64,000 bases of DNA, taken from contig CM020618.1 of assembly GCA_009829735.1 (NCBI GenBank), positions 30,728,894 through 30,792,893 of the forward strand, written 5' to 3'. The notes beneath the pieces were generated by a model. The model was not told the origin of the DNA. It saw nothing but the letters and a program-made list of their open reading frames with translations, and ran no database searches. This document shows positions 43,939 to 64,000 of this stretch, in pieces. The stretch's first letter is position 1, and the number at the start of each line of letters is the position of its first letter. The position numbers were made by a program, and so were the translations under genes. Origin of the DNA: Pyropia yezoensis (taxonomy: Eukaryota; Rhodophyta; Bangiophyceae; Bangiales; Bangiaceae).

Positions 43939-44302
43939 TGTAGCACAATAGGGTATCCGCTACAGGTCCACTCTCAGGGAACACTCACCACGGGGGATCG
44001 GCACCAACGTCACCGGGAGGCCAACGTTGCTGTACTTGGAGCGCAAGCCACGGGACCAAGATGGGAGCCCAAATGGGAGGGGTTTGTTGTTCTGCCTTGG
44101 CCGGCGGTGGATTCGCCGCCGGACCCCTCGTTATAAACCCTCGGAGACACTACTAACTACCCTCCACCCCAAGATGCAAGTCCCTCTGGTCATACGTAAC
44201 TTATAGATACCGTGACCAGTACGAACAATCAAATTGAAAGCCAAGGATTAGAAGTAGCCCCCCTAACATTAGGGTCACATTACGGCCGACCATATTGCTA
44301 CA
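43939..44302 (-). repeat. 3' LTR of outer element
   Basis: 364 bp, TGTAGC...GCTACA ends. Contains TATAAA on the plus strand at 44132-44137, pointing towards the antisense ORF, and a GC hairpin (CCGGCGG/CCGCCGG) near 44101-44121. Confidence 0.93.
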
Positions 44303-44314
44303 TATCCCTCCCTT
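44303..44314 (-). other. Polypurine tract of outer element
   Basis: Minus strand AAGGGAGGGATA directly before the TG of the 3' LTR, the expected plus-strand DNA primer site. Confidence 0.7.
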
Positions 44315-44865
44315 AGATTCGGCCCGTCCTCGGGTCGAGTTGCATTCGGGTTACCGAATGTAAGTGGGTCGCGTGACCGTTTACCAGTCGGGTGGGGCTT
44401 TGCGCCCTGTCGCGACAGACACCCCTTTTCGAGGTTGTCTGCGGGGGGTGCCCCCCTTTGTGTGGTACACACACGATCCGTTTTCCGGACCGTTAATTTC
44501 CCGATGCGGGTTTCTGTTCACGACCCCCCTTTCCGAGGGGTGGTGCAAGCGGATCCGCCACCAGGTGTCTGGTGGTAGGGGGGCCCCTCTCGAGTGGACG
44601 ATTGAGTGGGGGGCGGTTGGGGGTGACCCCCCTTGATTGCCCCGTGTGGGGGGGGCGTGGCTCCGGTCCAGGTGCCTGGGTGGAGCGCCCTCGTAGCTCG
44701 GCTGGCGTGGGTCGTCCCGCGCTGCCGTATCGCTCGTGCTGAGCTGTGTGGTTATATGCGCGGGTGCCCGCGCTTCCCTGGCTCGTCCGCGCGAGCGTTC
44801 CTCGTACCGGGTCGAGCCGGTTGCGGCTTTCTGGCACGGGACGCCCCTGCTACCCCGGTCTCACC
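44315..44865. other. Leader of the outer antisense ORF
   Basis: About 550 bp between polypurine tract and ATG 44866. A TTATATG at about 44750 could be a core promoter element; not tested. Confidence 0.35.
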
Positions 44866-46894
44866 ATGTCGGACCCCCAGTTACCCGGGAGCGAGGACTA
44901 CCTCCTGCTTGAGGAGGAGGAGGAGGTGATGCAGGACGACGTTCCCGTCTCCGCCACCGCTGCCGAGTGTTTCTTGGCGAGCTCGTCGGAGGACGAGGAC
45001 GACCGGGTGACCGTTCGTGTGGCCCCGGAAGGAGCGCCGGGCGGATTGTCGTCCGTGTGCAGCGGCACGACGGCTCCGTCGGGTGGCGGACCACCGCGTG
45101 CAGCGGTGGCCTCTACCGCTACTCCTCCGGCGGCCAGGATGGCTTCTGTCGCCGGTGCCGGCGCGACTCTACCTCAAGACGGCGTCGCCGGCGTGGCGGA
45201 TGGTCGTGGCCGCACCCCAGCCGAGCCGGCGCGGGTGCCCGCCCGGTGGGTGTGTCCGCGTCTGCGGGTAACGGGTCTACCCCTGCCGCCCCCGTGGTGC
45301 CCACGTCGGGCCCGGTTGGCGGCGATGCTCTGCCCGCGGTGCCGCGGACGCTTGGTGGTCAAGAAATGTCTACCCCGATGGCAGTGGACTCCGGGAGCTA
45401 CTCCGGGCGGGCGCCCGCCCTTCTTCTTCCTCCTCGGCCCCGTGCACCTCCGGCACCGGCCCATCTGCCGGTGGGGCATCCCCCGGCGCCCCCGATTCTT
45501 CCTGGTCCTGCCCGGGTTGCCCCGTTTGGTGGCGGCGTCGCCGTGGCGGCGGGTCAACTCGCCATGTCGATGTCCGATTTGGTGGCTCGGGTTCGAGGCA
45601 TGACTGTGCAAGAGTCGATGGAGTCCGATGGGTGGATGCGGGTGGACTTCCACCAGCCGCGTCTCCCTGGAGAGACCTCCCGGCGCGTCAAGGTGGACCC
45701 GAGTTGGGAGCGGGAGTTGGTGCGGCTGGTCAACCAGCCGAACGCGGTCCGAGTGGAGCATCATTGGATCCTGAGCCAGCCGGACGACCGGCATGCGCAG
45801 CTCTGGCGCACCCGGATTGGGCGGGGTGAGGTCTACCTCGACTCCGCCTTAGGGATATGCGACTTGATTGCCCCCGCGTTGCCGCGGGAGGTTGACTACC
45901 CGGCTAGTGCTCGGGGGATTGCGGCGGCGGCGGAGCCGGTTGCGTTTGGGGAAACGGTGGGTGATACCGGCCGGTATCCCGGGTTCGAGTACTTCCCGGG
46001 GGTATCCCCGTACCTGACGTTGACGGCTCCGTACCCGCCTATGGCGGGTTTGAAGTCAGCGTCGAGCTGGCGACGCAACCATGGTGTCATGGCGGATGCG
46101 TTCCGCACCGATATAACGTGTGCGTTGCAGACCGGTAACGGTCGCGCGCCGGTATACACTGCCGTGCGCCCGCCTCTCTGGCAGGAGGCGTAGGAACCCG
46201 CTCCTGCTTTCCGGTTTGACACCGGCTCCTGCCTCCGATACTTCGGGAGTGTGTTGGCCTCCCGTCCGGTCCACCCGTTGCAGGGTACCTTCACCCTTGA
46301 GGTTACCCTCGGGCAGGCTTCCTCCTTCTTGCTGTCCGTCCGCCGGCAGGGGCGCCTGTTTCATCTTCCGACGGGTGTCCGTCTGCACATCGCGCAGTTG
46401 GGCGTGGACATGATAGCCGCCAAGACCGGGTTGGCCCGGGAGTTCGAGGCTCTGCTGGCTGTACACGATGCCGTGAACTGGGCTGGGGTGTTGGCCCTTC
46501 CCCCGTACCGGGACCCGCAGGCTGGGGCTTCCCCCTTGCCTCGTCACTCGTTGCGTATCCGGCGTACTCAGCCGGGTGAGCCCAATTGCCATGGGTGGGC
46601 GTCCACCGAGGCTGTTGCTGACCTGGGTATTCCCATAGTTATCCATGACCCTCTTCAGGTCCTTGCCCCGTGGTTCGGTAACCCGATACCGGCGGCGGAT
46701 GGCCGTCGTCCCCGAGAGTGGGGCTCTGTGGGTGGGGAGCGTGAGGTGTCCCGTCGTCGGGCCGAGCCCCGCCGGGTTTACGGTGGGGCCCCTTCAGTAG
46801 GGTCCCACCGGGCCTCGTATCAGGTGTCACCGGCTCCGGTAGTAGCCGTGTCGGCTCCTGTGGCTCCTCTGGCTGCGCCAGTGTCACCTCCCGC
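44866..46894 (+). pseudogene. Antisense ORF of outer Ty3/gypsy element, part 1
   Basis: Runs opposite to gag-pol between integrase and 3' LTR. Starts MSDPQLPGSEDYLLLEEEEEV (acidic), then a Ser/Pro/Ala-rich linker; the frame shifts near 45235, after which MSMSDLVARVRGMTV, SDGWMRVDFHQPRLPGE and ALPREVDYP read as ordinary protein. A TAG at 46191-46193 interrupts it, followed in the same frame by LGQASSFLLSVRRQGRLFHLP and FEALLAVHDAVNW. At 46894 the inner element begins; the frame resumes at 56278. No known domain recognised. Antisense ORFs in this position are known in Tat/Ogre-type plant elements, but I see no similarity I can name. Confidence 0.6.
46890..46894 (+). repeat. Target-site duplication CCCGC, left copy
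   Basis: Matches 56273-56277 on the other side of the inner element. Confidence 0.9.
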
Positions 46895-47363
46895 TGTGGC
46901 AAAAACCACATGCACACACGGCACCCAAGTTGGGGCGGTGTGCAAGGGCTGCCTCCCGTGTCGGGGGAACCGGAAGAAGTGCAAGTCGCACACACTCTGT
47001 CCCTGTTGTGGGGCAAACCCCCCACGGACAAACAAGAGGATGGTGTGTGGTCCAACAGTTTCTTGGTCGGGACGGGGACGCAGGGCCAAGCCCCGCTGTC
47101 CCTCCCCTTATCCCCCCAGGGTCCACTCAGAATCTCGCCACTCAGAATCTCCCACCCCAGCACCTGCCCACCGGGCCACACGAAAATTCAAGACGATAAA
47201 TGCAGAAAACCGTCAAATCCAAGTTGGATTTACTACTAAGCTAACTATCCCAAACTTAGGGAATATGGACCCAAATGCAGGGGGAGGAACGGATCAGGCT
47301 AGTGGCCTGCCGCCCCTTGCATGGCACGTGTTGCCCCCCTGCCTGGGGGTCAATACTGCTACA
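46895..47363 (-). repeat. 3' LTR of inner element
   Basis: 469 bp; 443 bp (46898-47340) are identical to 55807-56249. Plus-strand ends are TGTGGC and GCTACA. Confidence 0.95.
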
Positions 47364-47377
47364 CTCCCCTCTCCTCA
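47364..47377 (-). other. Polypurine tract of inner element
   Basis: Minus strand TGAGGAGAGGGGAG immediately before the LTR. Confidence 0.8.
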
Positions 47378-47701
47378 GTTCCGACCGACCCGGTCGGCCC
47401 TGTGAGGGGGTGCGTAAACGAACGTCTCGGCGTTGGGGGCGCGACTTGCTGTCCCCCATCGAGTACGTAACGCGAATGTGGAGGCGGTCACGTTGACCGC
47501 CACTCTCCTCAAGCTTGCCCACTCGGCAGCTTGCTCTCCTCAGTTCACACTTCACCATCACCACCACCTCCCCTTCACCTTCCACTGGGCCGCCCCACGC
47601 TGGGGAGGCCACCCGTATACCCACGATCCGAGTCCCCCTCAACTCGAGGCGGGTCTCGTGCCGCGATAGCCAGAGCGTCTCTCCCCAACTTGGGGAGAGC
47701 C

Positions 47702-49619
47702 ATGGCGACCCCGGGAGTGGAGACGGACTCTCTAGATGAGCGTATGGAGGACACCACCTACGGTGCAGCACCCGCCGGGACTTCCGGCGGGGGCTCCGCG
47801 ATCGCTCCGGGGGATGGGACTCCCGCGTCACCCGGCTTTGGGTTGACGGCGGGGTCTCCCCCGGAGGCGGGACAAGTTGTCCCGCGTGAGGCCTTGGGGC
47901 GGTGGTTTTACCCCGCTTGGCCTCTCTATGAGGAGGGGTTGACTGTTCTTCGCTGTGGCCGACTTGGCGCAGCGATGGGTCGGGTATGGGACCGCCTACG
48001 GGAGAAGTATCCCCGTATGGTCGGGTTCCCTGCCGGCTTCAGGACGGACCAGTTTGCCTTCCTGGACGATGAGGAGGTTGAGGACGTTCAGCGTGCCAAG
48101 GCCATGGTGGACCGCGGGGGAACTATCCCGGGTCCCGGCGACTTGCCGACCTTTACTTGGGACGCGGTGGCAACTCGCCCCCCGTACCTTCACGAGGCCG
48201 ATCCGCACACTCATCACTTTGATGTGCGGATGGAGAAAGACTTCCGGCGAGGTCCCTACTTGGTGACCTCGGCTCAACTTGAGTTTCCTCAACAGTCTGC
48301 TGCCAGTAAGGAGCAGTACTATCCGAAGAAGCCCGAGTGGTGGCCTCAAGTTGAGGTCCCCTACGGGTTCCCGGCGTTGCTGCCACGGTTGCTTGACCAC
48401 TTCGGCTCCGTCATGTTGACGGCTGGCCCTGATCACCTGGTGTGGGCCATGTTGGCCACCCAGTGGCTCCTCGAGGTCATGTCGACCTGGGTGTCCTGTG
48501 TTCAGCGGCGGGGGATGCTCTGGCATCTCCCCCTCCGGCTCATCCAAGGTTTGGAACAGCTCACCCCTCAGCTAGTTGCTGAGGGGTGCTCATCAGGACA
48601 ACTCACTCTACTTGAGGAGATGCTCCGGCTCCATAAGTTTATCGAGTGGGAGAGCATTGAGCACAAGTTGCGCCGCCCCACTCGTGGGCCCAAGGACGAT
48701 GGCGCACTTCGCCAGTTCGTGTGGGTCGCTCGTGAACTTCACGACGGCCGTGTGGTCCTACGAGAGGGGTTGGGCATCGGGGACTACCCGTATGCCCCAG
48801 GGGTGGATCGCCACACTGCGCCACCCCCGGACAAGCCCATAGTTATGGCTGTGCCCTCATATGATGACCATATGACTCAACCTACTGCGGGGGCCCCAAG
48901 TCGGGGTCGCAGTTACACCCGGGTACCGCCACCTCGGCGTGCCCCTCCGCTTCCTCCTGTTCCTTTCCAGCCTCACGGGAACATCCCGATCAGCGTGGCC
49001 GTGGAGTCTTCCACCCCGGTGTCCCCCAACTTGGGGGCCACCCTCCTGACGGTATACCCCAAGTTCGTGTTACCGCCCACGCCTCTAACCTCAGAGATGA
49101 TGATCACCACGTTGGTGCGCACCATTTTCCTGGTTGGCTGCGTCGACCGCAACCCTCCAAAGTTCCGAGACTCCTCAACTTGAGGAGCGCGTTCGTACTG
49201 CAGTGGCGACCGCGAGTTGCGAGTCGGTGGCGGAGTTTATGACAGCCGAGTTGGCTCGCATTGGGGCTATTATGCCCCAGCCAGCCCCACTTGGGCGTGG
49301 CAAACGTCGCGCGAGCCGCGCATACTCGCCTCCTCGCCGTCGTCGCCGACACTCGCGGCGCTCTCCCTCCGTGTCGGAAGACGAGTTGTCTTACTCCGTC
49401 TCGGAGTCCTGTACCCCGTCGGAGACGGAGTCCGTCCAGCGTCTGCGTCGCAAACTTGCGCGCAAGACCAGGCAGAAGAGTAGCCACGGTCGGCGCCACG
49501 TGCGCGACCGTGAAGGGCGCGACGGTTCCGACTTGGAGCCGCCGCCCCTTCCAACGAGTGGAGACCGTTATAGGCGTGGGTCTCGCCGCTCGCCTCCACG
49601 TGAGGGCGAGGGCCGTTGA
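47702..49619 (+). CDS. Antisense ORF of inner Ty3/gypsy element, one frame change
   Basis: Convergent with pol, between integrase and 3' LTR. From ATG 47702 (MATPGVETDSLDERMED) about 475 codons read as a soluble, Trp/Pro-rich protein (WFYPAWPLYEEGL, RWDRLREKYPRMVGFPAG-like segments, PLRLIQGLEQLTPQLV, LLEEMLRLHKFIEW). Near 49115-49135 the frame changes and continues to TGA 49617-49619 with a basic Arg/Ser-rich tail (SPPRRRRRHSRRSPS), reminiscent of RS domains. The frame change may be an intron or an indel. One stretch aligns weakly with the outer antisense ORF. RNA binding is a guess from the tail only; no family recognised. A short gap 47378-47701 upstream holds nothing identifiable. Confidence 0.6.
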
Positions 49620-49757
49620 GTGGGAGAGTCTAGCATGCGTGCCTAGTTGGCAGCTGCCTTTGTTGCGAGAGTGTGAGGGTTAGGGCTGTAGTTAAAAGCC
49701 ACTCTGCGTACCACCTCGACTTGAAGCACTCTCTTGGCACTGTTGCTCGGCCTTCCC

Positions 49758-52700
49758 TCACGTTGAGGGAGGGCTGTTAGGGTCTATTTCATTCCGGGCA
49801 CAGTACGCCCGGACCTTCTCAGCAGGAAGGTCCTCCACATACTCCCACGTATCATCCTTGGCTTTGTAGCCAAACCAACGCACCCTCAACATGAGGCGGT
49901 TAGTGTCCTCATCCCATCCGTGGTCGATGAACTTATCGAACACGTACTCCTGCGGGCCCTGTTTGGCCGCAGGCAGTGAGGGGAGGCGCCACGCTTCCAA
50001 AGCACGCGCCCAAGCTGGGTCGCCTGCAGGCGGTGGAGCAACTTTGACCACGTCCTGTCTGTTCACTGTGCGGACCCCATCGTCACTTTCGATGGTGAAG
50101 CGCCGCCCATCAGTACGAAGGACCTGGTACGGCCCCTTCGTCTGGAATACCAACTTACCCCCAGTTGGGGTGTGTGAGTGAACCAACACCCAGTCACCCT
50201 GCTCGGGGACATGCTTAGCATTGCGCACCTTTTTGTCGAAGGTACGCTTGTAGCGCTTCTGTGCTTTATCCATCTCAGCCCTGACTTTAGGGATGAGGTT
50301 TTCGAGCCTAGCAGCGAACTCCGCCTTACTCTCAGTAGGAGAAGGCGTACTGCCACCATCCTCCCAAGTTGGGAGCGGCCGCTGCACGGCAATAGACCGC
50401 ACGCGACGGGGGGTCACAAAAGCGAAGGGTACTTCCCCGGTAGATGAGTGAACCTGCGAATTGTAGGCAGTCGTAAGGATAGAAATGTATTGGTCCCACG
50501 TCTTCACATGCTCACTCACATAGTGGCGCAGCTGCCGAGCAATAGTTGTGTCGAAGCGCTCCACCTGCCCATTAGTTTGTGGGTGGTAGGGGGTGGCGTA
50601 GTTTGCCTTAACCCCCAACATATCCAGCACTCCCTGAAACAGTACAGACGCAAATTGCGGTCCATTGTCCGATAGTGTACTATCCGGAATGCCATACGCG
50701 GCAACCCAGTGATCTAGGAAGGCTGACACGACCGACATGGCCGTGATCTCTGCCAGTGGGATCGCTCGCGTAAGTTTAGTGAAGCGGTCACAGATGACCA
50801 GGAGGTACTGGTTGCCCTCCTCGGTCACTGGCAATGGCCCAAGGATGTCCATCGCCAACGCGGCGAAGGGCTCCTTGGCCGGGAACAATAGCATAGCCGT
50901 ACTAGGCCGCCGTTCCATCAGACGGTTCTGTGCACAACTTGTGCAGGCAGCCACCCAGCTATAGATGTCCACCACCATGGACGGCCAGTAGTACCTGGTC
51001 CTCAGGGTCTGGTGCAGTTTACTAGACCCCAGGTGTCCACCCGGGGGAGCGTTGTGCTCCCTCTCAAGGATACTGCCCTTGAGGGATGCGGGGACGACAA
51101 GTTGTTCGGTCCCCTGGAATACCCCCCTCCTCACGAGGAGGCCATCGTCTCCCAGAAAGAAACGCGTCTCCACCACTGTATCCAGTGTATCCCTCTGCGA
51201 CTTGCAGAAGGGATCCTCGGCCTGGGCCTTCACCACCTCGTCCAGGGACAGGGGCGAGTACTTCTTATTCCCTGGCGCCTCGGGGTTCAACGCCTGACCC
51301 GAGCGCGTGACTACCCCCACGATGGGGATGTCCTCATCGACTGGGTTAGTGTCCAGCCCCTCGGTAGGTACCCGAGAGAGGCCGTCGGCAAGGGCATGTT
51401 GCCTGCCAGGTCGTTACTCAATGTCAAAGTTGAAGGGTGCCAGTCGCACCCTCCACCGATTGAGACGAGTGTTCGTACAGTCCGTCTTAAAGATGAACTG
51501 CAACGCGCGGTGGTCACAGCGGATGAGGAACTTCTCACCCTCTAGGTAGTGACGAAGTGACGTCACCGCCCACACCACTGCGAGTCCTTCCAACTCGGTG
51601 ACTCCGTAGTTCTTCTCGGCCAAGTTCAGCCCCTTACTGAAGTATCTTACCGGCAAGTACTCCTTGTCCGGCTGCTGCTGAAGCAACACACAACCAAGTT
51701 GGTCGTAGCTAGCGTCCACATCCAGGATGTAGTGGCCTCCCAACCTGGGAATAGCCAAGATGGGGGGCTTCAGCAGAAGGTCCCGAAGAGTCTCAAAGGA
51801 TTCCTGCTCCACCCGACTTGGGGGAGGCAGGTTCTTCGGTAGCGTTGAGCTCACTAGCTCATTCAACGGCTTCGCCACCTTGGCGAAGCCCTGGGTGAAA
51901 CGTCGGTACACGTTACACATCCCGAGGAAGCTCCTCATCTGGGTCTGGGTCCGGGGGTACTGAGCCTTACGAATGGCCCTCAAGTTCTTCTCGTTAACAC
52001 TGAGACGCCCCGGACGGACAACATGTCCCAAGTACTCCACCTCTTGAGTGATGAGGTGGCACTTACTCGCCTTCAGTGACACACCGGCGTCAGCAAGTAG
52101 CTTGAACACCTGGCCAAGATGGCCAATGTGTTCCTCCGGACTTCGGGAGAACACAATGATATCGTCTAGGTACACAAGACAGATCTGCCACCGTACTCCG
52201 GCCAGAATCATGTCCATAACAAGCTGGAAAGTTGCCAGCGCGTTACACAGACCAAACAGTAGGCGCTTGCACTGGTAGGTACCACAGTGACAGGTAAAGG
52301 TAGTTTTATGCCTGTCCTCCGGGGCAATGTGAATTTGCCAGTACCCCGCGTTACAGTCCAGGGTAGAGAACACGTTTGCCTCCCCCAGAGATTCCAGACA
52401 GTCGTCCATCCTAGGTAGGGGATAACTGTCCTTCACCGTGCTCTCGTTGAGCTTACGGTAGTCGATACAGAACCGGGGTGTCCCATCAACTTTGGGGACG
52501 ATAACCACCGGACTCGCCCACTCGGCGTTGCTGGCCTCGATCACATCGAGGGCCTCCATGCGAGCAACTTGCTCCTTAACGAGGGCCCTTGAACGAGGTC
52601 CTCCCCTATACGGTTGTTGGCGTATAGGGGGTGCACCGGGCTTCAACTCGATCCGGTGTTGGGTGGCTCTCATGAGTCCCAATTGACCATCCCACAACTT

Positions 52701-53741
52701 GTGATATTGGTCCAAGAGGCGTTCAACTTGAACCCTCAACCTGGGGGGGACACCCTCCATGTTCACATGGGGCCGAGGAGAGGCGGCCGACTTGGCTTGA
52801 TGCGTCTCCTTTCCGGACTTCTGGTCGCTACTTGCGCCCGCGTTGAGGGTGACCGCTACTACCGGTCCCTCGTGTTGGTCGATATAGCCGAACTTGGCTC
52901 CCGAATTGAAGTACTGGGGCGACGAGCTCAGGTTCATCACCTGTATCCTCCACGGGACTCCGGCTTTGGAGTCCATCGTGCCAAGGGCAACATGCACTTG
53001 GTGCTTGCGAGCAAGACGGGGGTGAGGGTGCACCAACCCGTTCCCCGTATAATCAGTTACAACATCAACGTGCGCCACCGAGTTGGGGGGCAACGTGACT
53101 TTACGGGCTAGACGCAGGGTAGCAGTACACCCTTCCCTCACAGAGCAAACAGGCTTCGACTGTGAGACTGTCACAGGAGCCACAGACTTTCCCATACCAA
53201 GGATGGGGATAGTCTCCCCATTCATCAACTTGACCCAGTACTCAGGGCCACAAATCAAAGGCACTTGTGTAACAACATAAGGGGTCCCCAGAAGCAGGGG
53301 TACCGATATATTCTCAACTACACCATAGGTCACGTCGACCTCATGGGTCCCCAACCTAGTTGGTAGGGTCACGGCACCAACGATGGGAAGTACCCCACCA
53401 TTGATGTCAATCATATGGTCAGCTTTGGACCTCCAGCGTTGGAGCTTCACCTCCTCAGGTAATAGCGACTTGCGTATTAAGGAGGCTCCTGACCCGGTAT
53501 CAAGTACGATACGGGCACAACAGGCGCGGCCGGGGGCAAGTTGCACCCGTCCAGCCACCTGGAAGTTCTCACCCGTCAGCACCGCGATGACCCGACGTGG
53601 GTTCACGTTCTTGGGGAGTCCTACCCGAGGTGGGCGGACTCCCTTAGGTCGCCACAGTATCCGGCACGGTTGGTTCGTCCTCCTGGCCCACTTGGCCGAG
53701 GCTGCCGTTGTGAGCTTCGGACGACCAGCCCCAACGGTCAT
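49758..53741 (-). CDS. Pol polyprotein of inner element (PR-RT-RNase H-IN-chromodomain), one nonsense codon
   Basis: ATG 53741. Aspartic protease IVLDTGSGASLIR (about residues 78-90) with LLLGTPY; reverse transcriptase from about residue 385, with FCIDYRKLN, LLFGLCNALATFQ and LVYLDD; RNase H with LDVDASYDQLG, TELEGLAVVWAV and CDHRALQF. A TAA at 51416-51414 interrupts the frame where FDIEYRPG.. is expected (a Tyr codon position); the same frame continues as RPGRQHALADGLSR, the end of RNase H, then integrase with HHCC finger (H..GGHLGSSKLH, CTSCAQNR), DILGPLP, SDNGPQFAS, YHPQTNGQVERF (D-D-E). A C-terminal chromodomain (LMLRVRWFGYKAKDDTWEYVEDLP) places it among chromoviruses. Confidence 0.93.
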
Positions 53742-53923
53742 TCGTTTCCCGCCGACTTGGCGTCCGAATCTGAGTGCGGGGAGGAAGACGACGAGTCCGA
53801 GGACGACGTGTCCGCCTCCTCCGCCGAGGGTGTGGCGACCGCGACGACCGGTCGAGACCCACCCTCGCGGCGTGAACGTACTTCGTTCGTAGCCGACTTC
53901 TTACTCGCATTCCTAACAAGATG

Positions 53924-55684
53924 TTAGATGCGTTTACTCAACTTGGGGCGATCATATGCCCAGTGTCCATCGGAGTTGCAGTTCCAACACCGATGGTCAG
54001 TTCCCGGAGGGGTCTTCCCAACTGGGGAAGACGAAGAGATACCCTGGGATGTTCCCACGGCAGCTACCACCCTCTCCTTGCGGATTCGGCGTGCCTCTCT
54101 CAACTCTCTGGCCTGGCGCGCCTTCTCCCGTTCCTTGGCCAACTCGGCCTGACGCTCCTGGCGTTGTTCCTCCCGCAACTTGCGGTAGGCCTCGCCTCTG
54201 CGATAGGCGAACCTGGCCAACTCGGCCAGGGTCGCCCGGGCAGTGTTATGCTCCCGGGTCTCCATCCGGACTGACCAATGGAGTCCCTCCACAAACCGAC
54301 TCTTCACCACAGCTTGTGGATGAAGAAACCCACACAGATTGTTGAGCTTACGGACTCGCTCCGCAAAGGACAACTCGTCCTCCGCCTCTTCCTGATGGGC
54401 TTGCGTAAACTCCTCGACTTGAGAAGCCAACGCTGCCTCATCAACCATGGCTCTCAACAACCAGTTGACGAGCTCCAAATAGGACGTCACCTCCCCAGCG
54501 CCTCCACTTGAGGAGCTGGGCATGACGGACATAAGTTCTGTCCGCAGGTCGCCCTTCGTGAACTCCTGTAGCATGTAAAAAGCCATGCCTTCACTTATGG
54601 CATTGTCGTCACAGGCTTTTGTGAAACGACGTAGGAACTCAAAGACACGGAGGGGGGGAGATCCATCCCACTCCGCTTTGTGCCCAAAAGAATGAAGTGC
54701 ATTCTTCTTGGCACGGCCCATGGCTCGGGCCTGGTCAGGACCATACGCCACCGACTTGTTGTGGAGGGCGTAGGTCTCACAGTCAAAGATCCGCTGGTAG
54801 ACCGGGTTGGCTACCTGGATCTTGGGCGGCACCTCACGTTGAGGGAACAGCCGCTGTGGCACTGGGGTAAGTTGACCCTCAGCGCCTGTAGTCTGGTACG
54901 GCGAGCTTGGTGTAGCCGCCGGCGTTTCCGGGGGGAACTCCCCCATGAAGGGCGTACGCCCCACCGAGTATGGTGTGGCTCCCTCGTTGGGAGTCACAGG
55001 TGTCGCCCCCAGTTCGGGGCGACCCGAGATAGGCGTGAGGAGAGATTCCCCCTGTGCCTGCGGGCTCGAGAGCCCCAATCCGGTCTGGACATTAAGGCCA
55101 TCTGGCAAACTCGCCACAATCTCATTCAGAATAGTATTCGTCATCGTGACCACCAGGTCCGGCAAAGTCTGCCGCAACACATTGGTCGCCTCCCGACGGA
55201 CAGTTTCCGCGAGGAGTGGATTGACGACTCCAGTTGAGTCTCGGTCCGCCTCCGGGAGTCCACCTGAGGGGTAACCACGCTCCTCAGGGGTCTCAACCGG
55301 GGGCATGGGCGCGAGCCCATCGCCGACCAACGGAGGTCCGCCGTCCTCCGAAAGCCTAGTTGGCGACAGCTCCAAGCCAAAGTTGGCTCCAACCCGAGTG
55401 GAACCCGCGGGGACAGTCCTCACCCCTTGGGACGTTCCCGTTGAGTATACCACACGGTGGCCAGACTTCGGCCCACCCACATCAGAAGTGTCACCCGAGT
55501 GAACTCCCGACTGAGTCGGGGTGGCCTGTTGCCCGCCCGTACTTCCAGTCCTGCTGGCTTGAGGGACCTCCAGTCCCTCTGCGACCCCAGGTAAACCCAC
55601 CTGTGTCTCACCAGTATTCAAAGGCACTGAAGTACGTGCGTCACCCGTGTACTCCCCGGACAACGGGGGGTCCGAGCTAGCCAT
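53924..55684 (-). CDS. Gag of inner element
   Basis: ATG 55684 (MASSDPPLSGEYTGD); an upstream in-frame GTG extends the frame but has no reason to be used. A long Pro/Gly/Thr-rich N-terminal half, capsid-like helical region (YGPDQARAMGRAKKNALHSF, DGSPPLRVFEFLRRFTKAC, AAYRRGEAYRKL-type segments), a highly charged coil (QERQAELAKEREKARQ) and a terminal zinc knuckle CWNCNSDGHWAYDR in which the fourth ligand is Arg (CGC) instead of Cys (TGC). About 180 nt separate its stop from pol, which is in another frame. Confidence 0.85.
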   Translation of the reverse strand: MASSDPPLSGEYTGDARTSVPLNTGETQVGLPGVAEGLEVPQASRTGSTGGQQATPTQSGVHSGDTSDVGGPKSGHRVVYSTGTSQGVRTVPAGSTRVGANFGLELSPTRLSEDGGPPLVGDGLAPMPPVETPEERGYPSGGLPEADRDSTGVVNPLLAETVRREATNVLRQTLPDLVVTMTNTILNEIVASLPDGLNVQTGLGLSSPQAQGESLLTPISGRPELGATPVTPNEGATPYSVGRTPFMGEFPPETPAATPSSPYQTTGAEGQLTPVPQRLFPQREVPPKIQVANPVYQRIFDCETYALHNKSVAYGPDQARAMGRAKKNALHSFGHKAEWDGSPPLRVFEFLRRFTKACDDNAISEGMAFYMLQEFTKGDLRTELMSVMPSSSSGGAGEVTSYLELVNWLLRAMVDEAALASQVEEFTQAHQEEAEDELSFAERVRKLNNLCGFLHPQAVVKSRFVEGLHWSVRMETREHNTARATLAELARFAYRRGEAYRKLREEQRQERQAELAKEREKARQARELREARRIRKERVVAAVGTSQGISSSSPVGKTPPGTDHRCWNCNSDGHWAYDRPKLSKRI

Positions 55685-55783
55685 GTTGGCTGACGATCCG
55701 TATGACACGGTCCACTACCACCGTTCCTCTGAGACAGAGGGCCCCCTACACCCGGGTGCACCCGGAGGAAAAGTTTACCTCTA

Positions 55784-55801
55784 TCCCCTGCTGCTCCACC
55801 A
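55784..55801 (-). other. Primer-binding site of inner element
   Basis: Minus strand TGGTGGAGCAGCAGGGGA, two bases from the LTR; starts TGG as expected for pairing with a tRNA CCA end. Identical to the PBS of the outer element. Confidence 0.85.
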
Positions 55802-55803
55802 AA

Positions 55804-56272
55804 TAAGGCAAAAACCACATGCACACACGGCACCCAAGTTGGGGCGGTGTGCAAGGGCTGCCTCCCGTGTCGGGGGAACCGGAAGAAGTGCAAGTCGCAC
55901 ACACTCTGTCCCTGTTGTGGGGCAAACCCCCCACGGACAAACAAGAGGATGGTGTGTGGTCCAACAGTTTCTTGGTCGGGACGGGGACGCAGGGCCAAGC
56001 CCCGCTGTCCCTCCCCTTATCCCCCCAGGGTCCACTCAGAATCTCGCCACTCAGAATCTCCCACCCCAGCACCTGCCCACCGGGCCACACGAAAATTCAA
56101 GACGATAAATGCAGAAAACCGTCAAATCCAAGTTGGATTTACTACTAAGCTAACTATCCCAAACTTAGGGAATATGGACCCAAATGCAGGGGGAGGAACG
56201 GATCAGGCTAGTGGCCTGCCGCCCCTTGCATGGCACGTGTTGCCCCCCTACCTGGGGGTCTATACTGCCACA
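55804..56272 (-). repeat. 5' LTR of inner element
   Basis: Pairs with 46895-47363. On the plus strand it starts TAAGGC where the other copy has TGTGGC. Confidence 0.93.
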
Positions 56273-56277
56273 CCCGC
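56273..56277 (+). repeat. Target-site duplication CCCGC, right copy
   Basis: Identical to 46890-46894. Confidence 0.9.
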
Positions 56278-56605
56278 CCCTGTCATGCGTGACGGGGGTC
56301 CCCGTCTCTGGTATGAGGGCGTTGACGCCCTTGTTGCCCGCGCAATGCGGGAGGGTCTCTCTGTTAGCTGGGGGGATATCCCCCCAGGTGCTGCGCTGGT
56401 TGGGTCAGCGCGTTGCTTCGGTGGCGTGCTTGACCGCCTCCAGACAGCTCTGGAGGACGTGGAGGCTGGCCGCAGCACCCTCGTTCAGCTATGCACCGAG
56501 GTAACTCGGGTGATTGACCGTCGTGAGATTGCCGACCGGTGGAGCAAGGAGGTATACGCGCTTACGCGTGAGTGGCGTCCCTCGGGCAGTGGGTCTACCC
56601 ACTGA
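56278..56605 (+). pseudogene. Antisense ORF of outer element, part 2
   Basis: Continues part 1 in the same codon phase once the inner element and one CCCGC are subtracted. Encodes PVMRDGGPRLWYEGVDALVARAM and a helical segment (GVLDRLQTALEDVEAG, EVTRVIDRREIADRW), ending TGA 56603-56605. The C-terminal helices look like a coiled coil. Confidence 0.7.
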
Positions 56606-57056: not shown

Positions 57057-60000
57057 TTACAGTAGGCGTCGTCGCCTCATGTAAGGCATGAGGAGTTGGC
57101 GGGGTATATTCGCCGCCTGTTCCCAGGTGGGTGAGTCGTATCCGACCCACATTACCTTGACGTACCAGGGTCCTGGTAGGTCCGGGTCGGTGTGTCCGAC
57201 CACGCTCTCTACTTGGTATGGAATCCCATCCGGTCCCACGGGGTCATCTGACCAGTGGGTTGTAAGAGCTTCATGTAGCAACCCAGCCGGTACCGGCTGA
57301 GGCTGTTCCGGCTTCGGAGAAGGTGTCACATCATTGAGGGTGATGCGTTTTATCTCCGTATCGGAGTGCAGGATGACAGAGTGATCATCTCTGTGTAAGA
57401 TCTGGTACGGTCCCTTGACCGGTTGCATAAGCTTGTTCCCTCGGAACTTCTGGTGTCTGATGTAGACCCAGTCACCTGTTACCAGGGTTGCGTTGCGCAC
57501 CCGTAACCGGGCGTCAAAGTTCTTCTTGTATCGAAGTTGTGTACGGTCAAGGGCACCCTTGAGCTTGGGTATCATCCACGATAGCTTGGCCAACCAAGCT
57601 AAGTGGATCCGTTCGGCCGGTCGGCCCTTCGGTATATCATACCGAGTGCATCTGCCCGGTGGCAGCGTCAGGTTCCCGACGCCCATTGGCATGACCCATT
57701 CCAGTGGTGCAATACTGGTACTTCGGTGGGGCCTGGCATTGTATGCCAGGGTCAAGACGGACAGAAGCCTGTCCCACGTCTTCGTGTGCTCCGCCACATA
57801 GCATTGGAGCATCTTCACGATGGTGCGGTTGAACCGCTCCACCTGCCCGTTGGATTGCGGGTGGTAGTCGGATGCCCGACGGGGTTCGATGCCGAACATG
57901 CCCAGGACCTTAGCGCAGGATGCTGACGTAAGGTTTGCTCCGTTATCGGAGAGGAGTTGCTTCATTACTCCGTAAGCACTGATCCAGTGGTCAGCGACCG
58001 CGTTCATGATCGTGTAGGCCGTATCGTTCGGGATTGCTACTGCCCGTGACAGCTTAGTAAAGCGGTCCGACATGACCAGGATGTACCTGTTCCCTTCTTC
58101 CGTTACCGGAAGCGGTCCGAGTATGTCGATAGCGACTTGCTCGTTGGGTCCATCCGGGGGGAACAATTTCATCGCGGATGCCCGCCTATGAAGACTCATG
58201 CGATTCCGTGCGCACGGGTGGCATCCCCGCACGTGGTCGATTACGTCGACGGCCATGGCTGGCCAGTAGAAGAACCTTCGCATTGCTGCGAACATGCGTG
58301 AACCCCCCGGGTGTCCGGCCGTGGGGTTCTCGTGTTCTCGTTCCATGACGGCCTGCCGTAAGGACACGGGAACCACGACCTGATGCCGTCCATCGGCGGG
58401 TGCCCGCCGATATATGAGTCCGTCCTCGTTCTCGGAGAAGATGCCGGCCGTGCCGGCCAGGAGGTTAGCACGATGGCGTTTACAGTCATGGTCATTGGCC
58501 TGTGCCTCGCGGAAGTCCGCGAGGGTCAATGGGCACGCAAGGTGTGCCATGGTATGGTCAACAATACCTTGGGTAGCATTACCCACCATGCACACCGGTA
58601 CCACCGGGATGTCTTCGTCCACCTGTCGGGTATCCCCGCTTGGGGTATCGAGTCGCGACAGCGCGTCCCCCAGATAATGGGTGGAGCCGGCATTATATAT
58701 GGTCCGGTAGTCGTGCTCGGCCATCTTCAGCCTCCACCGGGCTTGCCGACCGTGGCTGTCGGAATCCTTGTCACCAAGGTTGAGAAGCCATCGTAAAGGT
58801 TCGTGGTCGGACCTTACGATGAACCTGGAACCTTCCAGGTATGGCCGGAGAAGTTGCACTGCCCATATGACTCCGAGGCACTCGCGCTCGGTGGCACTAT
58901 AGTTACGCTCAGCCGGGTTGAGTGTCCGGCTGAAGTACCCTACCGGATGTAGGTTCGGGATAGCATTATCGGTACCGATGATGGTCTCTCCCTGGAGCAG
59001 GGTGCATCCCACTTGGGTGTCGCAGGCGTCGACGTCGATGACGAAGGCCCCGCGTCTATGCGGCAACGCAAGCACGGGTGGGGCTAGCAGAGCTTGCTTG
59101 AGCAGCTCGAATGCCTCTGCCTCGCTGGGCGAGGGAGGTTGGAGTACCTTTGGCAAGGCACTGCTCGTCAGAACCGTTAACGGTTTGGCTTTACGAGCGA
59201 AGTCGTTGACGAACCGTCGGTATACGTTGCACATCCCCAAAAAGCTTTTCAGCTGTGTCTGGGTGGTTGGGTATTGCGCATCCCGGAGTGCCCGGGTATT
59301 AGCTTCGAGCACTCCCAGTTTACCTGGTGTGATCTGGTGACCCAGATACTCGACTGTCTGCTGGAAGAAGGCGCACTTCTTGAGGCGCAGGGCTACCCCG
59401 GCGTTCCGCAAGAGGGTGAGTACCTCGTCGACATGTTGCACATGGTCATCCATGTTACGCGAGAAGACGATGACGTCGTCCAAGTACACCAGGCAGTTAC
59501 GCCACTTGACTCCCGACAGTATGATGTCGATGGCCCGTTGGAATGTGGCGGGGGCGTTGGACAATCCGACGGGCATCCTTAGGAACTCGTACACGCCACT
59601 GTGACAGACGAACGCCGTCTTGGGGATATCCTTTTCCGCCACTGGGATCTGGCAGTACCCGGCATTGCAGTCGATAGTGGTAAACACTGTGGCTTCCCCC
59701 AGCGAGTCGATACACTCGTCCATCCTTGGTAAAGGGTATGAGTCTTTCTTGGTAACCGAGTTGAGGCGTCGATAATCGATGCAAAACCGAGGGGTTTGAT
59801 CCTTTTTCGGTACGATCACGACTGGGGCACCCCACTCCGACATCGAAGGTCGGATCACCTTAGCTTCACTCATCCTCTTCACTTCCCCATCAACGATCTC
59901 TCGTTGCATAGGTCCCGCACGATGCGGTTGCGACCGCGCTGGTCCAGCTGTCACGAGTACCTGGTACCAGGTCTATACGGTGTTGGGTTGCCCCAATGGT

Positions 60001-61158
60001 ACCCAGCGCCCCGCCGGTCCACATGACGTCGTGCTTTCTTAGCATCCGTCGTACCCCTTCAGCTACCGAAGGGGGAAGGTGGTCGAGGTCAGCCTCGGCC
60101 AGTGCCTTCAAGGCTTCTTGGTCCTTTGGCGGCATGTCCGCCGAAGCCGCCGATGGGTTAGGCTTCCCGTCATCGGGTTGCTGTCGCTCGGTGGTCTCGG
60201 CGACCGCCAGCACCTCAAGTGGTTCCACTTGACCTTCCTTGTCAGGGGTAAGGATATCTCCTTCGTAGAGCTCGGCAATCCCGAGGATAGTTCCCTTCGG
60301 GAGGGTGACTGCCTTACGGCAATAGTTCGCCATCAGCAGCAGTGATGACCCCCCTGCTGGGAGGTCTGCGATACCATTGGCCATGGTCAACCCATGGCGC
60401 TTGTAGGTTCGTAGGTTGGACTGGACTCTGCAGATGCCTGCGAGGTCACAGTTAACCGGAAGGACGGTCTCCGATAGCGGCTCAAAGCGAGTCCGCTTGG
60501 CCAGCCGGAGTGTCTTCGGTTCTACGCTTGCGTATACCTCAGCCACGTTAACGTGGCTCCCTTGTAGCGTCAGGTCCCTGACGATAGCTGTCTGTCCTCT
60601 CTTCGTCGCGTCGGCCTCTTGAAGCTCGAAGGTCCTCCGGCCCTGCCGGATTGCATCAACGTGAACGTTGATGAAGGTGCACCCCAGTATGCAGGGCACA
60701 GATAGCGTCTCACATACCAGGAAGTCAACTTCCGTAGTAAGCTCTTCGATGGTGACCTGCAGCGACATCGCTGCGGTCGTACGAATGAGACGACCATTCG
60801 CATCCTTGATCGTGGGTCCCCGAGCAACTCTGACTCGTGGGAGCCACTTGTCCGGGAGGGTATCCTTCCGGATCAAGTTATGTCCAGCCCCTGTATCCAG
60901 TACGGGGTAATACGACCGGGTCGACTGGGGTTCAACCCCCCGTGTGGCTGATACCTCGAAGTTCGCTAAGGTGAACAGTACGCGGCCTACACCGATAAAA
61001 GGTGTAGCTCGGGCATCCTGAACAGGGCCCTTGTCTGGTTCCATGTGACGGGGCTTCCCGTCCTCTCCTCCCAACCTTGGAGGTTGGTCATCAATCCCCT
61101 GACGCCGTGTCGTCGGGGCCGGAAGGTGTACCCGGGGGTTGATGCGGCGTCGGCTCAA
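57057..61158 (-). CDS. Pol polyprotein of outer element (PR-RT-RNase H-IN-chromodomain), one frameshift
   Basis: First frame (61158-59890): protease YYPVLDTGAGHNLIRK with CILGCTFI, then a linker to ATQHRIDLVPGT. The frame shifts by one near 59925-59950, and the second frame (to 57057) has FCIDYRRLN, MPVGLSNAPATFQR, LVYLDD (residues 157-160 of that frame), RNase H (IDVDACDTQVG, ATERECLGVIWAV, SDHEPL, YLGDALSRL), integrase (H...GHPGGSRMF, CHPCARNR; DILGPLP, SDNGANLTS, YHPQSNGQVERF) and a chromodomain (YQVESVV...YVKVMWVGYDSPTWEQAANIP). No ATG opens the first frame (it begins at TTG), so expression by frameshift or read-through from gag is likely. The one-base shift before RT is probably mutational because the expected junction (PGT..) falls on it. 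Confidence 0.93.
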
Positions 61159-61241
61159 CCGCGCTCTCCGTGGGGCTTTCCCCGCGGCAGTCCGGGGTGG
61201 CTTGCTAGGGTTACCCCAGCGACCGCGTGTCGTCCTTCCTC

Positions 61242-63419
61242 TTACTCGTTTCCCGTGCTCGGCCGGGTACCGTCCTCCGGGGCATCCGAGGGAGGGGGTG
61301 CCTCCTCGACTGCCAGTACTCCTCCTGGAGCTTGCTGCTTACCCGGTGCCGGGCCTCGGGCGGGATACCCACCCATGGATGCCTTGCGTTGCGCAGCTGC
61401 CCGTAGAGACTCCTCCGGGATGAGTGGGCATGCGGACACCCAGTGTTGGGGGTCGCCGCACAACATGCATTCGGACGTGCCGGCCGTCCCGGGTGTCCGC
61501 GTCGGGTTGGCTCCAAAGGTCCGGTTGCCTGCCTCGGGTGCCCGAGTGCCTGCCCCTTGGTAGGCCTTGGGTCCCGGTGCCAACCGGAACATGGACTTCC
61601 CCAGCCGGTTGGCTCTACCAGCGATGTGCGGAGGTGCATCCGTACGTAATGCCCATGTCGGCAGGGGCTGGTGGGGGTTACCCGTAACCGGGGCATACCC
61701 CGTAGTCCGCACATACGGGGCGCGCCGACCCGCTCCCTCGTTGACCTGGAACTGGGTCCCAGCCGGGGCGATGTACGCTACCGTACCATGCTCATCAATC
61801 ACCGGCGTCGCCGGTAGCAACGGGTGGCCCTGTTAGTCGACTAGAAATTCATCCTCACCGGTAGGGGTATGTTCGGTCGCCACCAGTACTGGTGCGGCCT
61901 TACGTTCCACCTTCTCTTGCCTCGGTACCGGGGTAAGACTGGGCTTGCCTCCCTCACCCTGGGGCTTCGGGGCCAAGGCGCATTCCGGGTGTAGCACCCG
62001 GTAGGCGTCCCCTAGGGACTTGCACATATGCATCAGTCGACTGAAGTTCGTCCGGGCCGTATTGGCTCCCCGTGCGGATATCCGCACGTAGTTGGGTACT
62101 CCTGCGAACAGGATGGCCCGTAGTTCCCCTTCACCGAGAAGCTTCCCCAGCTCGTAGTCGAGCTCTTGGATCCGGCGTCCAAACATCTCCTCATCCTCCC
62201 AGGACTGGGCGGTGGCAGTGCGAAGGGCCCGATAGTGGTCTTCGCACTTGTCCTCACTGAGGTAGCTGCTAAGCAGCTCCTTCAATATCCCACGGTAATC
62301 CATGGGGGTGGCTGCGACCCTCATTCCCGGCATCGGGGATGCCTGGCGGAGGATGCCTCGAACCCGCTCGTCAACAAAGAACGGGAGGATCTCCAGCGCC
62401 AGCCCCTCGGTGACGAGTGCCTTGTCTGCGGCTGCCTTAAAGCTAGTCAAGAAGCCGATGGCTGCCAACGGGCGTCCGTTGGGGCCCCCGAACATAGGGA
62501 CTCCCTTCATAAGGGTCTGCATAGAGCGAATCGCTCGGTGCGAGGTCGTACGCATCGATTCCGATACGGCAGTGGATCGGTCCTCCAAACGATAACGTTC
62601 GGGAGTCAGTACCGACCTGAAGACTTCGTTGACAATCTCCGTGTCCGCGTCCTGGACATCCAGTCGCTTCGCCAGTTGATGAGTGAACTCATCGGACTCC
62701 AACCGCTTCAGTAAGCTCGCAGGAACCTGCGCTGTCATCGCTTGCATGAGTGACGCTGGAACTTCCGGCGTCGGCGCCTCGGGTACCCGAGTTGCCTGGC
62801 TTCCGTCGTCGAGGGGGTAATGGGAGACGGTACCGTCTCCCCCCATCGCCGACTCTGTTCCGGCGTAAGTGTCCGCCGGACCATGTCCGCGGAGCCCGCT
62901 CTGGGTGCTCCGAGCGTAGCGTTCCGTATGGCTACGTTCCAACCCACCCGACGAGTCGGATCCATAACCCGCCGTGTCCGGGGGTTGTCCAGGAGTAGCA
63001 ACACCGGGGTTGACCCTGGTGGCCTCCGAAAGTAGTCCGGCCGGTTCGAACCGTACCGGTGTGGGGGGGACCCGACGGGGTACCGTCGTATGGCGCGCTG
63101 ACATCAGCACCGCCATTGCGTCCTCCGTACGCTCTTGACGAGCGTCGAGCCCGGTGAACCGGGCTTCGATGCGAGCCAATGATGCCATCAGGGAGTCTCC
63201 TGGTGAAGGTGGCGGCGGCTTGAGGTCGGCAGAGGACAGTTGCGGCGGTCCGCCGCCCCCGGCCGTCCGTGCCGTACCAAACGTCGATCCGGCACCGGAG
63301 AGCATCGGCGTCTCAATGTTGTCGATCGGGTTACCGATCCCGGTTCCCGGGTTCAGCTCCGGGGTCGGCGTCGACGCCGATCCGTCACCTTGAACGTTCC
63401 CCGTCTCTTGGGTAGACAT
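61242..63419 (-). CDS. Gag of outer element with an in-frame TAA
   Basis: ATG 63419 (MSTQETGNVQGD). Disordered N-terminus, a helical segment SLMASLARIEARFTGLDARQERTED, capsid-like region (about residues 250-470: LGFLTSFKAAADKAL-type, MFGRRIQELDYELGKLL, NFSRLMHMCKSLGDAYRVL), then EDEFLVD and TAA at 61835-61833. The same frame continues for 192 codons with a CCHC knuckle, CMLCGDPQHWVSAC (C-x2-C-x4-H-x4-C), to the stop at 61242. The nucleocapsid is therefore separated from the capsid by a single stop, either mutation or a read-through design. Confidence 0.88.
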
Positions 63420-63624
63420 AGTCACAATCAGTCAACCGACGTAACAGTCACCACGAATAAGAGAGCGAGGGGGTAGTTGGGGGAGAGTAACCGTAGATCG
63501 CAGTCAAACGCAACTACTCAAAACAACCAACAGATCGCAGCACCACGAGTACAAGAAAAGGACTGGATCCCTATCCGTGTGCCAGGGCCGAAGACGGCGT
63601 CACCACAAGGGTGACGGAGACCCG

Positions 63625-63642
63625 TCCCCTGCTGCTCCACCA
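63625..63642 (-). other. Primer-binding site of outer element
   Basis: TGGTGGAGCAGCAGGGGA on the minus strand, one base from the LTR; identical over 18 nt to the inner element's PBS. The region 63420-63624 between it and gag is the untranslated leader. Confidence 0.88.
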
Positions 63643-63643
63643 A

Positions 63644-64000
63644 TGTAGCACAATAGGGTATCCGCTGCACGTCCACTCTCAGGGAACACTCACCAAGGGG
63701 GATCGGCACCAACGTCACCGGGAGGCCAAGGTTGCTGTCCTTGGAGCACAGGCCACGGGACCAAGATGGGAGCCCAAATGGGAGGGGTTTGTTGTTCTGC
63801 CTTGGCCGGCGGTGGATTCGCCGCCGGCTTCCTCGTTACAAACCCTCGGAGACACTACTAACTACCCTCCACCCAAAGATGCAAGTCCCTCTGGTCATAC
63901 GTAACTAATAGATACCGTGACCAGTACGGACTCTCAAAATTGAAAGCCAAGGATTAGAAGTAGCCCCCCTAATATTAGGGTCACAATACGGCCGACCATA
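63644..64000 (-). repeat. 5' LTR of outer element, cut by window end
   Basis: Matches 43939-44302 and the solo LTR 8459-8823; about 8 terminal bases are outside. Includes the perfect palindrome CCCTAATATTAGGG, present also in the solo copy. Confidence 0.93.

What the first reader, a model, noticed from the sequence alone, without database searches (positions are those of the whole stretch)
43939..64000. Two nested chromoviruses, each with a long antisense ORF between integrase and 3' LTR
Both Ty3/gypsy elements carry, besides gag and pol on the minus strand, a plus-strand ORF of roughly 560-780 codons (44866-46894 plus 56278-56605; 47702-49619) placed between integrase and polypurine tract. 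The outer one is proven to be a coding-length unit because the inner element's 5-bp duplication and exact subtraction restore its frame. Antisense ORFs in this position are known in plant Tat/Ogre-type elements, but those lack chromodomains; here both carriers are chromodomain elements. Two independent families with the same layout suggest a conserved accessory function in this lineage.
Basis: partly seen in the sequence, partly recalled or inferred. Interest (0 to 1): 0.88.

Follow-up and report, generated by a model that had tools for sequence, protein, structure and literature searches.

The report
Antisense gene in algal jumping genes
Two related families of retrotransposons in a red alga each carry an extra gene, written on the opposite strand to their usual genes, whose protein sequence has been kept by natural selection; the protein matched nothing known in our searches, and similar backward genes have so far mostly been described in flowering plants.

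Summary
Both nested Ty3/gypsy elements (LTRs, 5-bp target duplications, gag, protease, RT, integrase on the minus strand) carry a long plus-strand gene between integrase and 3' LTR. In the window both antisense frames are broken: the inner one by a frameshift, the outer one by a frame change, a stop codon and the insertion. Elsewhere in the 107-Mb genome open copies are common (724 codons in 76 of 87 scored inner copies; 825 is the commonest outer frame). The gene sits at a fixed place beside integrase in 143 of 200 sites checked and is under purifying selection (dN/dS 0.09 inner, 0.36-0.38 outer). The two antisense proteins are distant homologues; the outer one has relatives in Pyropia vietnamensis. 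The elements are sister families (RT 54% identical), so the gene was most likely in their ancestor. No accepted Pfam or PDB match was found, nor the plant Retand antisense domain Transposase_28; modelling failed. The inner chromodomain is good, the outer sub-threshold. Antisense genes at this position are a known kind; the protein family is new, and my searches listed no red-algal report. Most likely role (inferred): a nuclear accessory regulator.

The parts
43939..44302 (-). outer element, 3' LTR
   Evidence: repeat pair, TG...CA ends, GGAGG duplication
44303..44865 (+). leader between outer 3' LTR and the first ATG of the antisense gene; candidate place of an antisense promoter (inferred)
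   Evidence: coordinates
44866..46894 (+). outer antisense gene, first part (broken: frame change 45222-45228, stop at 46191-46193, inner element inserted)
   Evidence: tblastn of an unbroken copy's protein on L009/L001; ORF list; sequence
46890..46894 (.). target-site duplication of inner element, left copy (CCCGC)
46895..47363 (-). inner element, 3' LTR (right edge to within a base or two), followed by a pyrimidine-rich stretch (polypurine tract on the minus strand)
47702..49183 (+). inner antisense gene, main frame (open frame of this copy ends here; frameshift near 49125)
   Evidence: homologue P0001 in L005
49134..49619 (+). inner antisense gene, Arg/Ser-rich tail, in another frame in this copy
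49758..51320 (-). inner integrase with C-terminal chromodomain (last ~60 aa)
   Evidence: Pfam rve, H2C2; Chromo 25.5 bits as a C-terminal piece; HP1 in PDB E=2.6e-5
51414..53741 (-). inner protease-RT-RNase H (protease match weak)
   Evidence: Pfam
53924..55708 (-). inner gag with sub-threshold zinc knuckle
55785..55801 (-). inner primer binding site; same 17 bases as in the outer element (tRNA not identified)
   Evidence: sequence
55804..56272 (-). inner element, 5' LTR
56273..56277 (.). target-site duplication of inner element, right copy (CCCGC)
56278..56605 (+). outer antisense gene, last part
   Evidence: the unbroken copy L020 ends in nearly the same residues
57057..59954 (-). outer RT-RNase H-integrase with sub-threshold chromodomain
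59890..61158 (-). outer protease (Pfam matches just under their cut-offs)
61833..63425 (-). outer gag (no Pfam match; 25% identical to inner gag over 220 aa, E=5e-17)
63626..63642 (-). outer primer binding site
   Evidence: sequence
63644..64000 (-). outer element, 5' LTR (runs to 64008, past the window)

Best explanation
Each element carries a genuine accessory protein gene on the strand opposite to gag-pol, between integrase and 3' LTR, inherited from a common ancestor of the two families. The protein (647 aa inner in L005, 789 aa outer in L020) has a conserved core of about 350 residues and charged, low-complexity arms (acidic N-terminus in the outer protein, Arg/Ser-rich tail in the inner one). 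Shown: open frames, fixed layout, presence in most sites checked, purifying selection, homology between the families and to another Pyropia species, no similarity to gag or pol, no accepted match to known domains. Inferred: it is made from an antisense transcript that starts in the 3' LTR or the 340-560-base leader and converges on the integrase gene, and it works in the nucleus, binding element nucleic acid or chromatin to tune transcription, RNA export or integration of the element, like the roles proposed for Grande gene23, Retand TRP28 proteins and the antisense proteins of some retroviruses.
For: Open frames: inner, 87 of 87 scored matches stop-free in the matched part and 76 of 87 with a 724-codon frame; outer, 132 of 150 scored matches stop-free in the 208-aa query, commonest frame 825 codons. 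Fixed layout: 75 of the first 100 listed exact outer integrase sites and 68 of the first 100 inner ones have an exact antisense marker at the expected distance and orientation, 0 on the wrong side or strand; genome totals integrase vs antisense 944 vs 888 and 1180 vs 1044, reversed-pattern controls 0. Selection: inner dN/dS 0.093 in 7 copies (integrase 0.080 in 6), variable sites by codon position 19/23/110; outer 0.375, pol 0.113 in the same 17 copies. Other frames give 1.17-3.74, except the minus frame sharing third positions, which is worse than the antisense frame (0.161 inner, 0.354 outer core) and has up to 25 stops in inner copies and 10 in 369 codons of the outer core of L020. Protein comparison of two outer families scores best in the antisense frame (L045-L020: 1416, next 1208). 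Homology: four P. vietnamensis proteins 31-51% identical, three more by profile; inner-outer E=6e-8 and hhalign probability 84%. Nuclear role: Arg/Ser-rich basic tail of the inner protein and no membrane-type segment, plus reported precedents (PMC7264820, PMC11963269).
Against: No transcript or protein evidence was available. The outer gene's dN/dS is about three times that of pol. 6 of 28 outer copies examined have internal stops, L024 and L033 have net deletions of 1 and 25 bases, and 18 of 150 scored outer matches have stops. One minus frame of the outer core is nearly open (2 stops in 370 codons of L020; 0-3 in the four outer copies cut correctly), though it scores 981 against 1416 between L045 and L020. 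Structure prediction failed (mean pLDDT 29.8 and 38.8), so the fold and any nucleic-acid binding are unknown. The Arg/Ser tail is only in the inner family. The nuclear function rests on analogy.
Confidence: 0.55

Rival explanations
1. The antisense transcript, not the protein, is the functional product: it pairs with genomic RNA and feeds silencing or copy-number control, and the open frame is a side effect.
For: Antisense transcripts of LTR elements are proposed to act this way (PMC7264820); the gene converges on integrase.
Against: Codon-level constraint, dN/dS 0.054 over inner residues 1-480, and protein-level conservation at 31-51% identity across species are hard to explain without translation.
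Confidence: 0.1
2. The protein is structural or particle-borne: a second capsid-like or envelope-like component.
For: Helix-rich but low-confidence models; the position downstream of pol is that of env (established knowledge).
Against: No similarity to either gag (best E 1.2), no membrane-type segment, opposite strand to gag-pol, so it would need its own promoter.
Confidence: 0.12
3. The protein counters host silencing: it blocks small-RNA or chromatin silencing of its own family, which would explain fast evolution in the outer families.
For: Antisense protein about 60% identical between outer families whose integrase tails are about 90% identical; outer dN/dS three times that of pol.
Against: The inner gene is about as constrained as integrase; gag diverges as much as the antisense protein between inner and outer; no domain match points to a suppressor.
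Confidence: 0.17
4. A host gene captured once and hitch-hiking, or an open frame produced by high G+C content.
For: G+C content of the two stretches is 64% and 69% and favours open frames.
Against: 888 and 1044 antisense marker sites in the genome, four outer groups plus the inner family, observed frames longer than any of 500 simulations each, purifying selection.
Confidence: 0.03

Closest known systems
Plant elements with an antisense ORF between pol and 3' LTR (Retand, Grande, RIRE2)
   Same: [quoted passage not shown] PMC11963269, passages read).
   Different: Retand is a non-chromovirus lineage and 97% of its clusters encode Transposase_28 (PMC11963269); here the carriers have integrase chromodomains (inner clear, outer weak) and no Transposase_28 match was listed in the proteins or found in the genome.
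PvRetro13 (Phaseolus) and Boty (Botrytis)
   Same: Listed with antisense ORFs at the same place (PMC7264820).
   Different: Neither sequence nor chromodomain status was compared here; PvRetro13's protein is reported there to have an SMC domain.
Chromoviruses / chromodomain-bearing Ty3/gypsy elements
   Same: Chromodomain after integrase. The abstract of PMC3605345 (seen in the listing only) says chromoviruses occur in green and red algae.
   Different: No antisense gene was mentioned in the passages seen. PMC3350952 (passages) lists no retrotransposon chromodomain for Porphyra yezoensis (EST none, genome data not available). Chromodomain-bearing Gypsy lineages of Ectocarpus are not related to chromoviruses (PMC12477816, passages), so a chromodomain alone does not make a chromovirus.
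Antisense proteins of retroviruses such as HTLV-1 (mentioned in PMC7264820 and PMC11963269)
   Same: Antisense gene near the 3' LTR, regulatory role.
   Different: No sequence comparison was made.

Membership tests
LTR retrotransposon with antisense aORF between pol and 3' LTR (aORF-3R) | ORF antisense to gag-pol, between integrase and 3' LTR | tested here: met
LTR retrotransposon with antisense aORF between pol and 3' LTR (aORF-3R) | present in most copies of the family, conserved like other element proteins | tested here: met
   75 of 100 and 68 of 100 exact integrase sites paired, totals; dN/dS close to integrase in the inner family, about three times pol in the outer
LTR retrotransposon with antisense aORF between pol and 3' LTR (aORF-3R) | transcribed from its own antisense promoter | not testable with these tools
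   no RNA data
Retand lineage | antisense protein with Transposase_28 (PF04195) | tested here: not met
   not listed for the proteins at E up to 10 (HMMER filters drop most matches above about 0.1) and no match in the genome up to E=1 (its 14 control genomes gave no match over the cut-off, so there was no positive control)
Retand lineage | non-chromovirus, no chromodomain | tested here: not met
   chromodomain in inner integrase
Chromovirus | chromodomain at integrase C-terminus, inner element | tested here: met
   25.5 bits vs cut-off 25.1 for the C-terminal piece, 24.9 in L004, 22.7 for the whole ORF, HP1 E=2.6e-5
Chromovirus | chromodomain at integrase C-terminus, outer element | tested here: inconclusive
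   15.0-19.6 bits in six outer-type pieces, all below 25.1; PDB chromodomain hits only at E 0.58-1.3; same place and W-GY...TWE pattern
Chromovirus | RT groups with chromoviruses | not tested
   no tree with reference clades was made
Envelope-bearing (env-like) element | sense orientation and transmembrane segment | tested here: not met
   antisense; highest 19-residue hydropathy 1.39 in P0001, P0002, P0006
One antisense protein family shared by inner and outer elements | significant sequence homology | tested here: met
   E=6e-8, down to 3e-10 with L056/L059, profile probability 84%; the plain six-frame scores alone do not separate it well

The most novel reading that the evidence does not exclude
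An ancient antisense-gene system of red-algal chromodomain Ty3/gypsy elements, unrelated in sequence to the plant one: a dedicated nuclear factor that works together with the chromodomain integrase, either to steer the element to chromatin or to shield it from silencing. If so, backward accessory genes between integrase and 3' LTR arose at least twice and are a recurrent solution.
Probability: 0.3. Interest if true: 0.85.

Novelty: new variant of a known kind. Interest (0 to 1): 0.62.

Why it matters
The function of antisense genes in LTR retrotransposons is an open question (PMC7264820, PMC11963269). Here is another set, with no detected relation to the plant domain, in a distant phylum, in two sister groups with roughly a thousand marker sites each in a 107-Mb genome, one of which shows very strong codon-level constraint. 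That makes comparison possible: what the plant and algal proteins share in localisation or partners would point to the common function. It also shows that a chromodomain-bearing element can carry such a gene.

Tried and rejected
Structure: two AlphaFold2 jobs (with A2, 7 sequences; with A5, 12 sequences) gave mean pLDDT 29.8 and 38.8. No fold search was run, because such models give meaningless matches. Pfam at E up to 10: only DUF6214 at about 15 bits for the outer protein (cut-off 26.6), in 1 of 7 members of A4; taken as chance. PDB by sequence: a 3C-like protease at E=0.7 with the A4 profile, taken as chance; none for P0001.

Considered and dropped: 'antisense-only' mini-elements. L031 proved to be a copy interrupted by another element; the 3489-base array on C2 is a tandem repeat of an LTR plus antisense unit; L008 and L050, where no integrase was seen in the flank, were not followed up. 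A coding frame on the minus strand in the same stretch: the frame sharing third positions also has dN/dS below 1, but worse and with many stops; another minus frame is nearly open in the outer core (2 stops in 370 codons), but the two remaining minus frames have dN/dS 1.17 and 2.18. In one search the L041 rows were cut at the wrong place by my pattern and are not used; among them are two pairs where a minus frame beats the antisense frame (L041-L020, 179 to 162; L041-L005, 122 to 96). The other inner-outer rows there score 109-137 in the antisense frame against 76-109 for the best other frame, so the homology claim rests.

Sampling limits: the 20 loci were picked by me from the list, all on the + strand and none with a listed stop, so their openness is biased; openness is argued. 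In one search, 28 copies were used (L010-L020, L024-L040); L021-L023 (same places as L011, L013, L019) and the window copy L009 were left out. In one search, 17 of 19 loci had both regions; L029 and L031 dropped out. The non-coding spacer comparison had 8 copies (mean distance 0.050) and was not used further. The inner dN/dS uses 7 copies. In one search, 82 of the 100 listed inner antisense sites were typed in; the 18 left out lie beyond the last integrase site. Unpaired sites were not examined. Searches score only the best candidates, so diverged relatives of the inner family may exist unseen.

Literature: searches (one search failed on a term) listed no paper whose title, abstract start or passages seen report an antisense gene in red-algal Ty3/gypsy elements; only open-licence papers are held and most listed papers were not opened. 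Details of Boty could not be found.
Full report
What is there. The window lies in a 107.48-Mb genome of 11 contigs, three of them of 43.6, 34.3 and 29.4 Mb. The only named relatives of the antisense protein are from Pyropia vietnamensis, a bangialean red alga. Size and three large contigs fit what I recall of Pyropia yezoensis; the identity was not tested. The finding region holds one Ty3/gypsy element (43939-64008) with another inserted in it (46895-56272). Both have LTR pairs, 5-bp duplications (GGAGG; CCCGC), the same 17-base primer binding site, and gag, protease, RT, RNase H and integrase on the minus strand. Inner LTRs are identical at 464 of 470 and outer LTRs at 346 of 365 aligned positions, as expected from the nesting.

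The antisense genes in the window are broken. The inner stretch 47702-49619 has five stops when translated as stated: an open frame to 49183, then a second frame 49134-49619, the shift lying near 49125. The outer stretch changes frame at 45222-45228, has a stop codon at 46191-46193, and is split by the inner element at the CCCGC duplication.

Other copies carry the proof. A search with the inner antisense protein had 3743 first-look candidates, of which 87 were scored: all 87 stop-free in the matched part, 76 with the same 724-codon frame (my count). A 208-aa piece of the outer protein had 1163 candidates, 150 scored: 132 stop-free, commonest frame 825 codons. Layout test: 24-base markers in integrase and in the antisense gene (up to 2 mismatches) count 944 and 888 for the outer superfamily and 1180 and 1044 for the inner family; the same patterns read backwards gave 0. 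Among the first 100 listed exact integrase sites, 75 (outer) and 68 (inner) have an exact antisense site at the expected distance and orientation, none on the wrong side or strand. The unpaired sites were not examined; since only exact sites were listed, marker mismatches are a likely cause for some. If all copies were full length the two groups would make up at most about 20% of the genome; this is a rough upper bound by inference.

Selection. For 28 outer copies dN/dS is 0.359 over the whole gene and 0.275 in the core. In 17 copies with both regions it is 0.375 for the antisense gene and 0.113 for pol. For the inner family it is 0.093 in 7 copies, against 0.080 for the integrase end in 6; residues 1-480 alone give 0.054. 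The other frames give 1.17 to 3.74, except the minus frame that shares third positions: 0.354 (outer core) and 0.161 (inner), worse than the antisense frame in both cases, with up to 25 stops in the inner copies and 10 stops in 369 codons of the outer core of L020. Between two outer families the protein score is 1416 in the antisense frame and at most 1208 in any other (L045 vs L020). Simulated sequences did not reach the observed frame lengths in 500 runs each. Against: 6 of the 28 outer copies have internal stops and two have net frame-changing deletions.

One protein family. The outer protein has six matches at E <= 1, four from P. vietnamensis at 31-51% identity; a profile search added three more P. 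vietnamensis proteins and two unnamed ones. The inner protein had one match, unnamed, at 97%. A P. vietnamensis protein used as query on the own genome revealed further groups: L041/L042, L043-L060 without L056 and L059, and L056/L059, with identities to the outer protein of about 50%, 57-74% and 80%. In 19 of these 20 loci the integrase tail lies on the opposite strand just past the antisense stop (not seen in L050); it was also seen in 19 of the 20 loci (not in L031) and in 7 of the 8 inner loci (not in L008); L009-L020 do not reach that far. Inner and outer proteins align at 23% over 164 residues (E=6e-8), up to E=3e-10 with L056/L059, and by profile at 84% probability. RT is 54%, integrase 37%, gag 25% identical. 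So the families are sisters and the gene is most simply ancestral. The antisense protein diverges faster than integrase (about 60% against about 90% between outer groups) and about as fast as gag.

What the protein is. No Pfam domain beyond a chance-level DUF6214 hit, no accepted PDB relative, no similarity to gag or pol, no membrane-type segment, an acidic outer N-terminus and an Arg/Ser-rich basic inner C-terminus. The most conserved part is around residues 121-240 of the L020 core, with 74 of 120 columns invariant in the seven sequences of A4. AlphaFold2 gave mainly helices at low confidence.

How it may work. Shown: a selected, protein-coding, antisense gene present across the families. 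Inferred: an antisense transcript from the 3' LTR or leader; a nuclear accessory protein acting on element RNA, DNA or chromatin. This analogy comes from Grande gene23 (nuclear, own promoter) and Retand TRP28 (predicted DNA binding), as reported in PMC7264820 (parts 1 and 2 of 3 read) and PMC11963269 (passages). A silencing-suppressor role is a live rival because the outer gene evolves fast.

Known or new. Antisense ORFs at this place are a described kind. New here, as far as my searches went, are the protein family, the host phylum, and a chromodomain carrier. The inner chromodomain is convincing (25.5 bits as a C-terminal piece, 24.9 in L004, HP1 E=2.6e-5). The outer one is below threshold in the six pieces tested (15.0-16.0 bits in the outer family and L059, 17.4 in L044, 19.6 in L042) and its PDB hits are at chance level, although the position and the W-GY...TWE pattern agree. 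Transposase_28 was not found in the genome at E<=1 (without a positive control). PMC3350952 (passages) lists no retrotransposon chromodomain for Porphyra yezoensis, on EST data only. Whether the elements are chromoviruses by RT tree was not tested.

Check.

Noticed in passing
G000:C2:9880079-9892183 (L062 = 9883500-9887200): Four antisense-gene copies in tandem at about 3.49-kb spacing. The unit read in L062 is LTR, leader, antisense gene and part of the spacer, without gag-pol; the 212 bases of the next unit held are identical.
   Followed up: partly
G000:C1:3594616, 3598481, 3602344: Three antisense markers on one strand at 3.86-kb spacing, only the first next to a listed integrase marker: possibly another tandem array.
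   Followed up: no
L056 430-3156, L059: Antisense protein looks mosaic: N-terminal third like the L043-L060 group, the rest like the outer family; suggests recombination between families inside the gene.
   Followed up: partly
window 8459-8824: A further copy of the outer-family LTR, 94.8% identical to the LTR in L031 over 366 bases, seen as a by-product of a comparison.
   Followed up: no
window 55804-55806 and 46895-46897: The PBS-side end of the inner 5' LTR reads TAA where the 3' LTR reads TGT (plus strand), although the LTRs are otherwise nearly identical.
   Followed up: no
window 38948-40294 (minus strand), next to 40147-42015 (minus): A 448-aa ORF outside the elements has a Cas12f1-like/TnpB zinc-ribbon match (PF07282, E=5.8e-4, 20.4 bits, cut-off 26.3) and an NRDKNAARHI string like the TnpB/Fanzor end motif (recalled); the overlapping 622-aa ORF upstream had no Pfam match. 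Possibly a Fanzor-like gene.
   Followed up: partly
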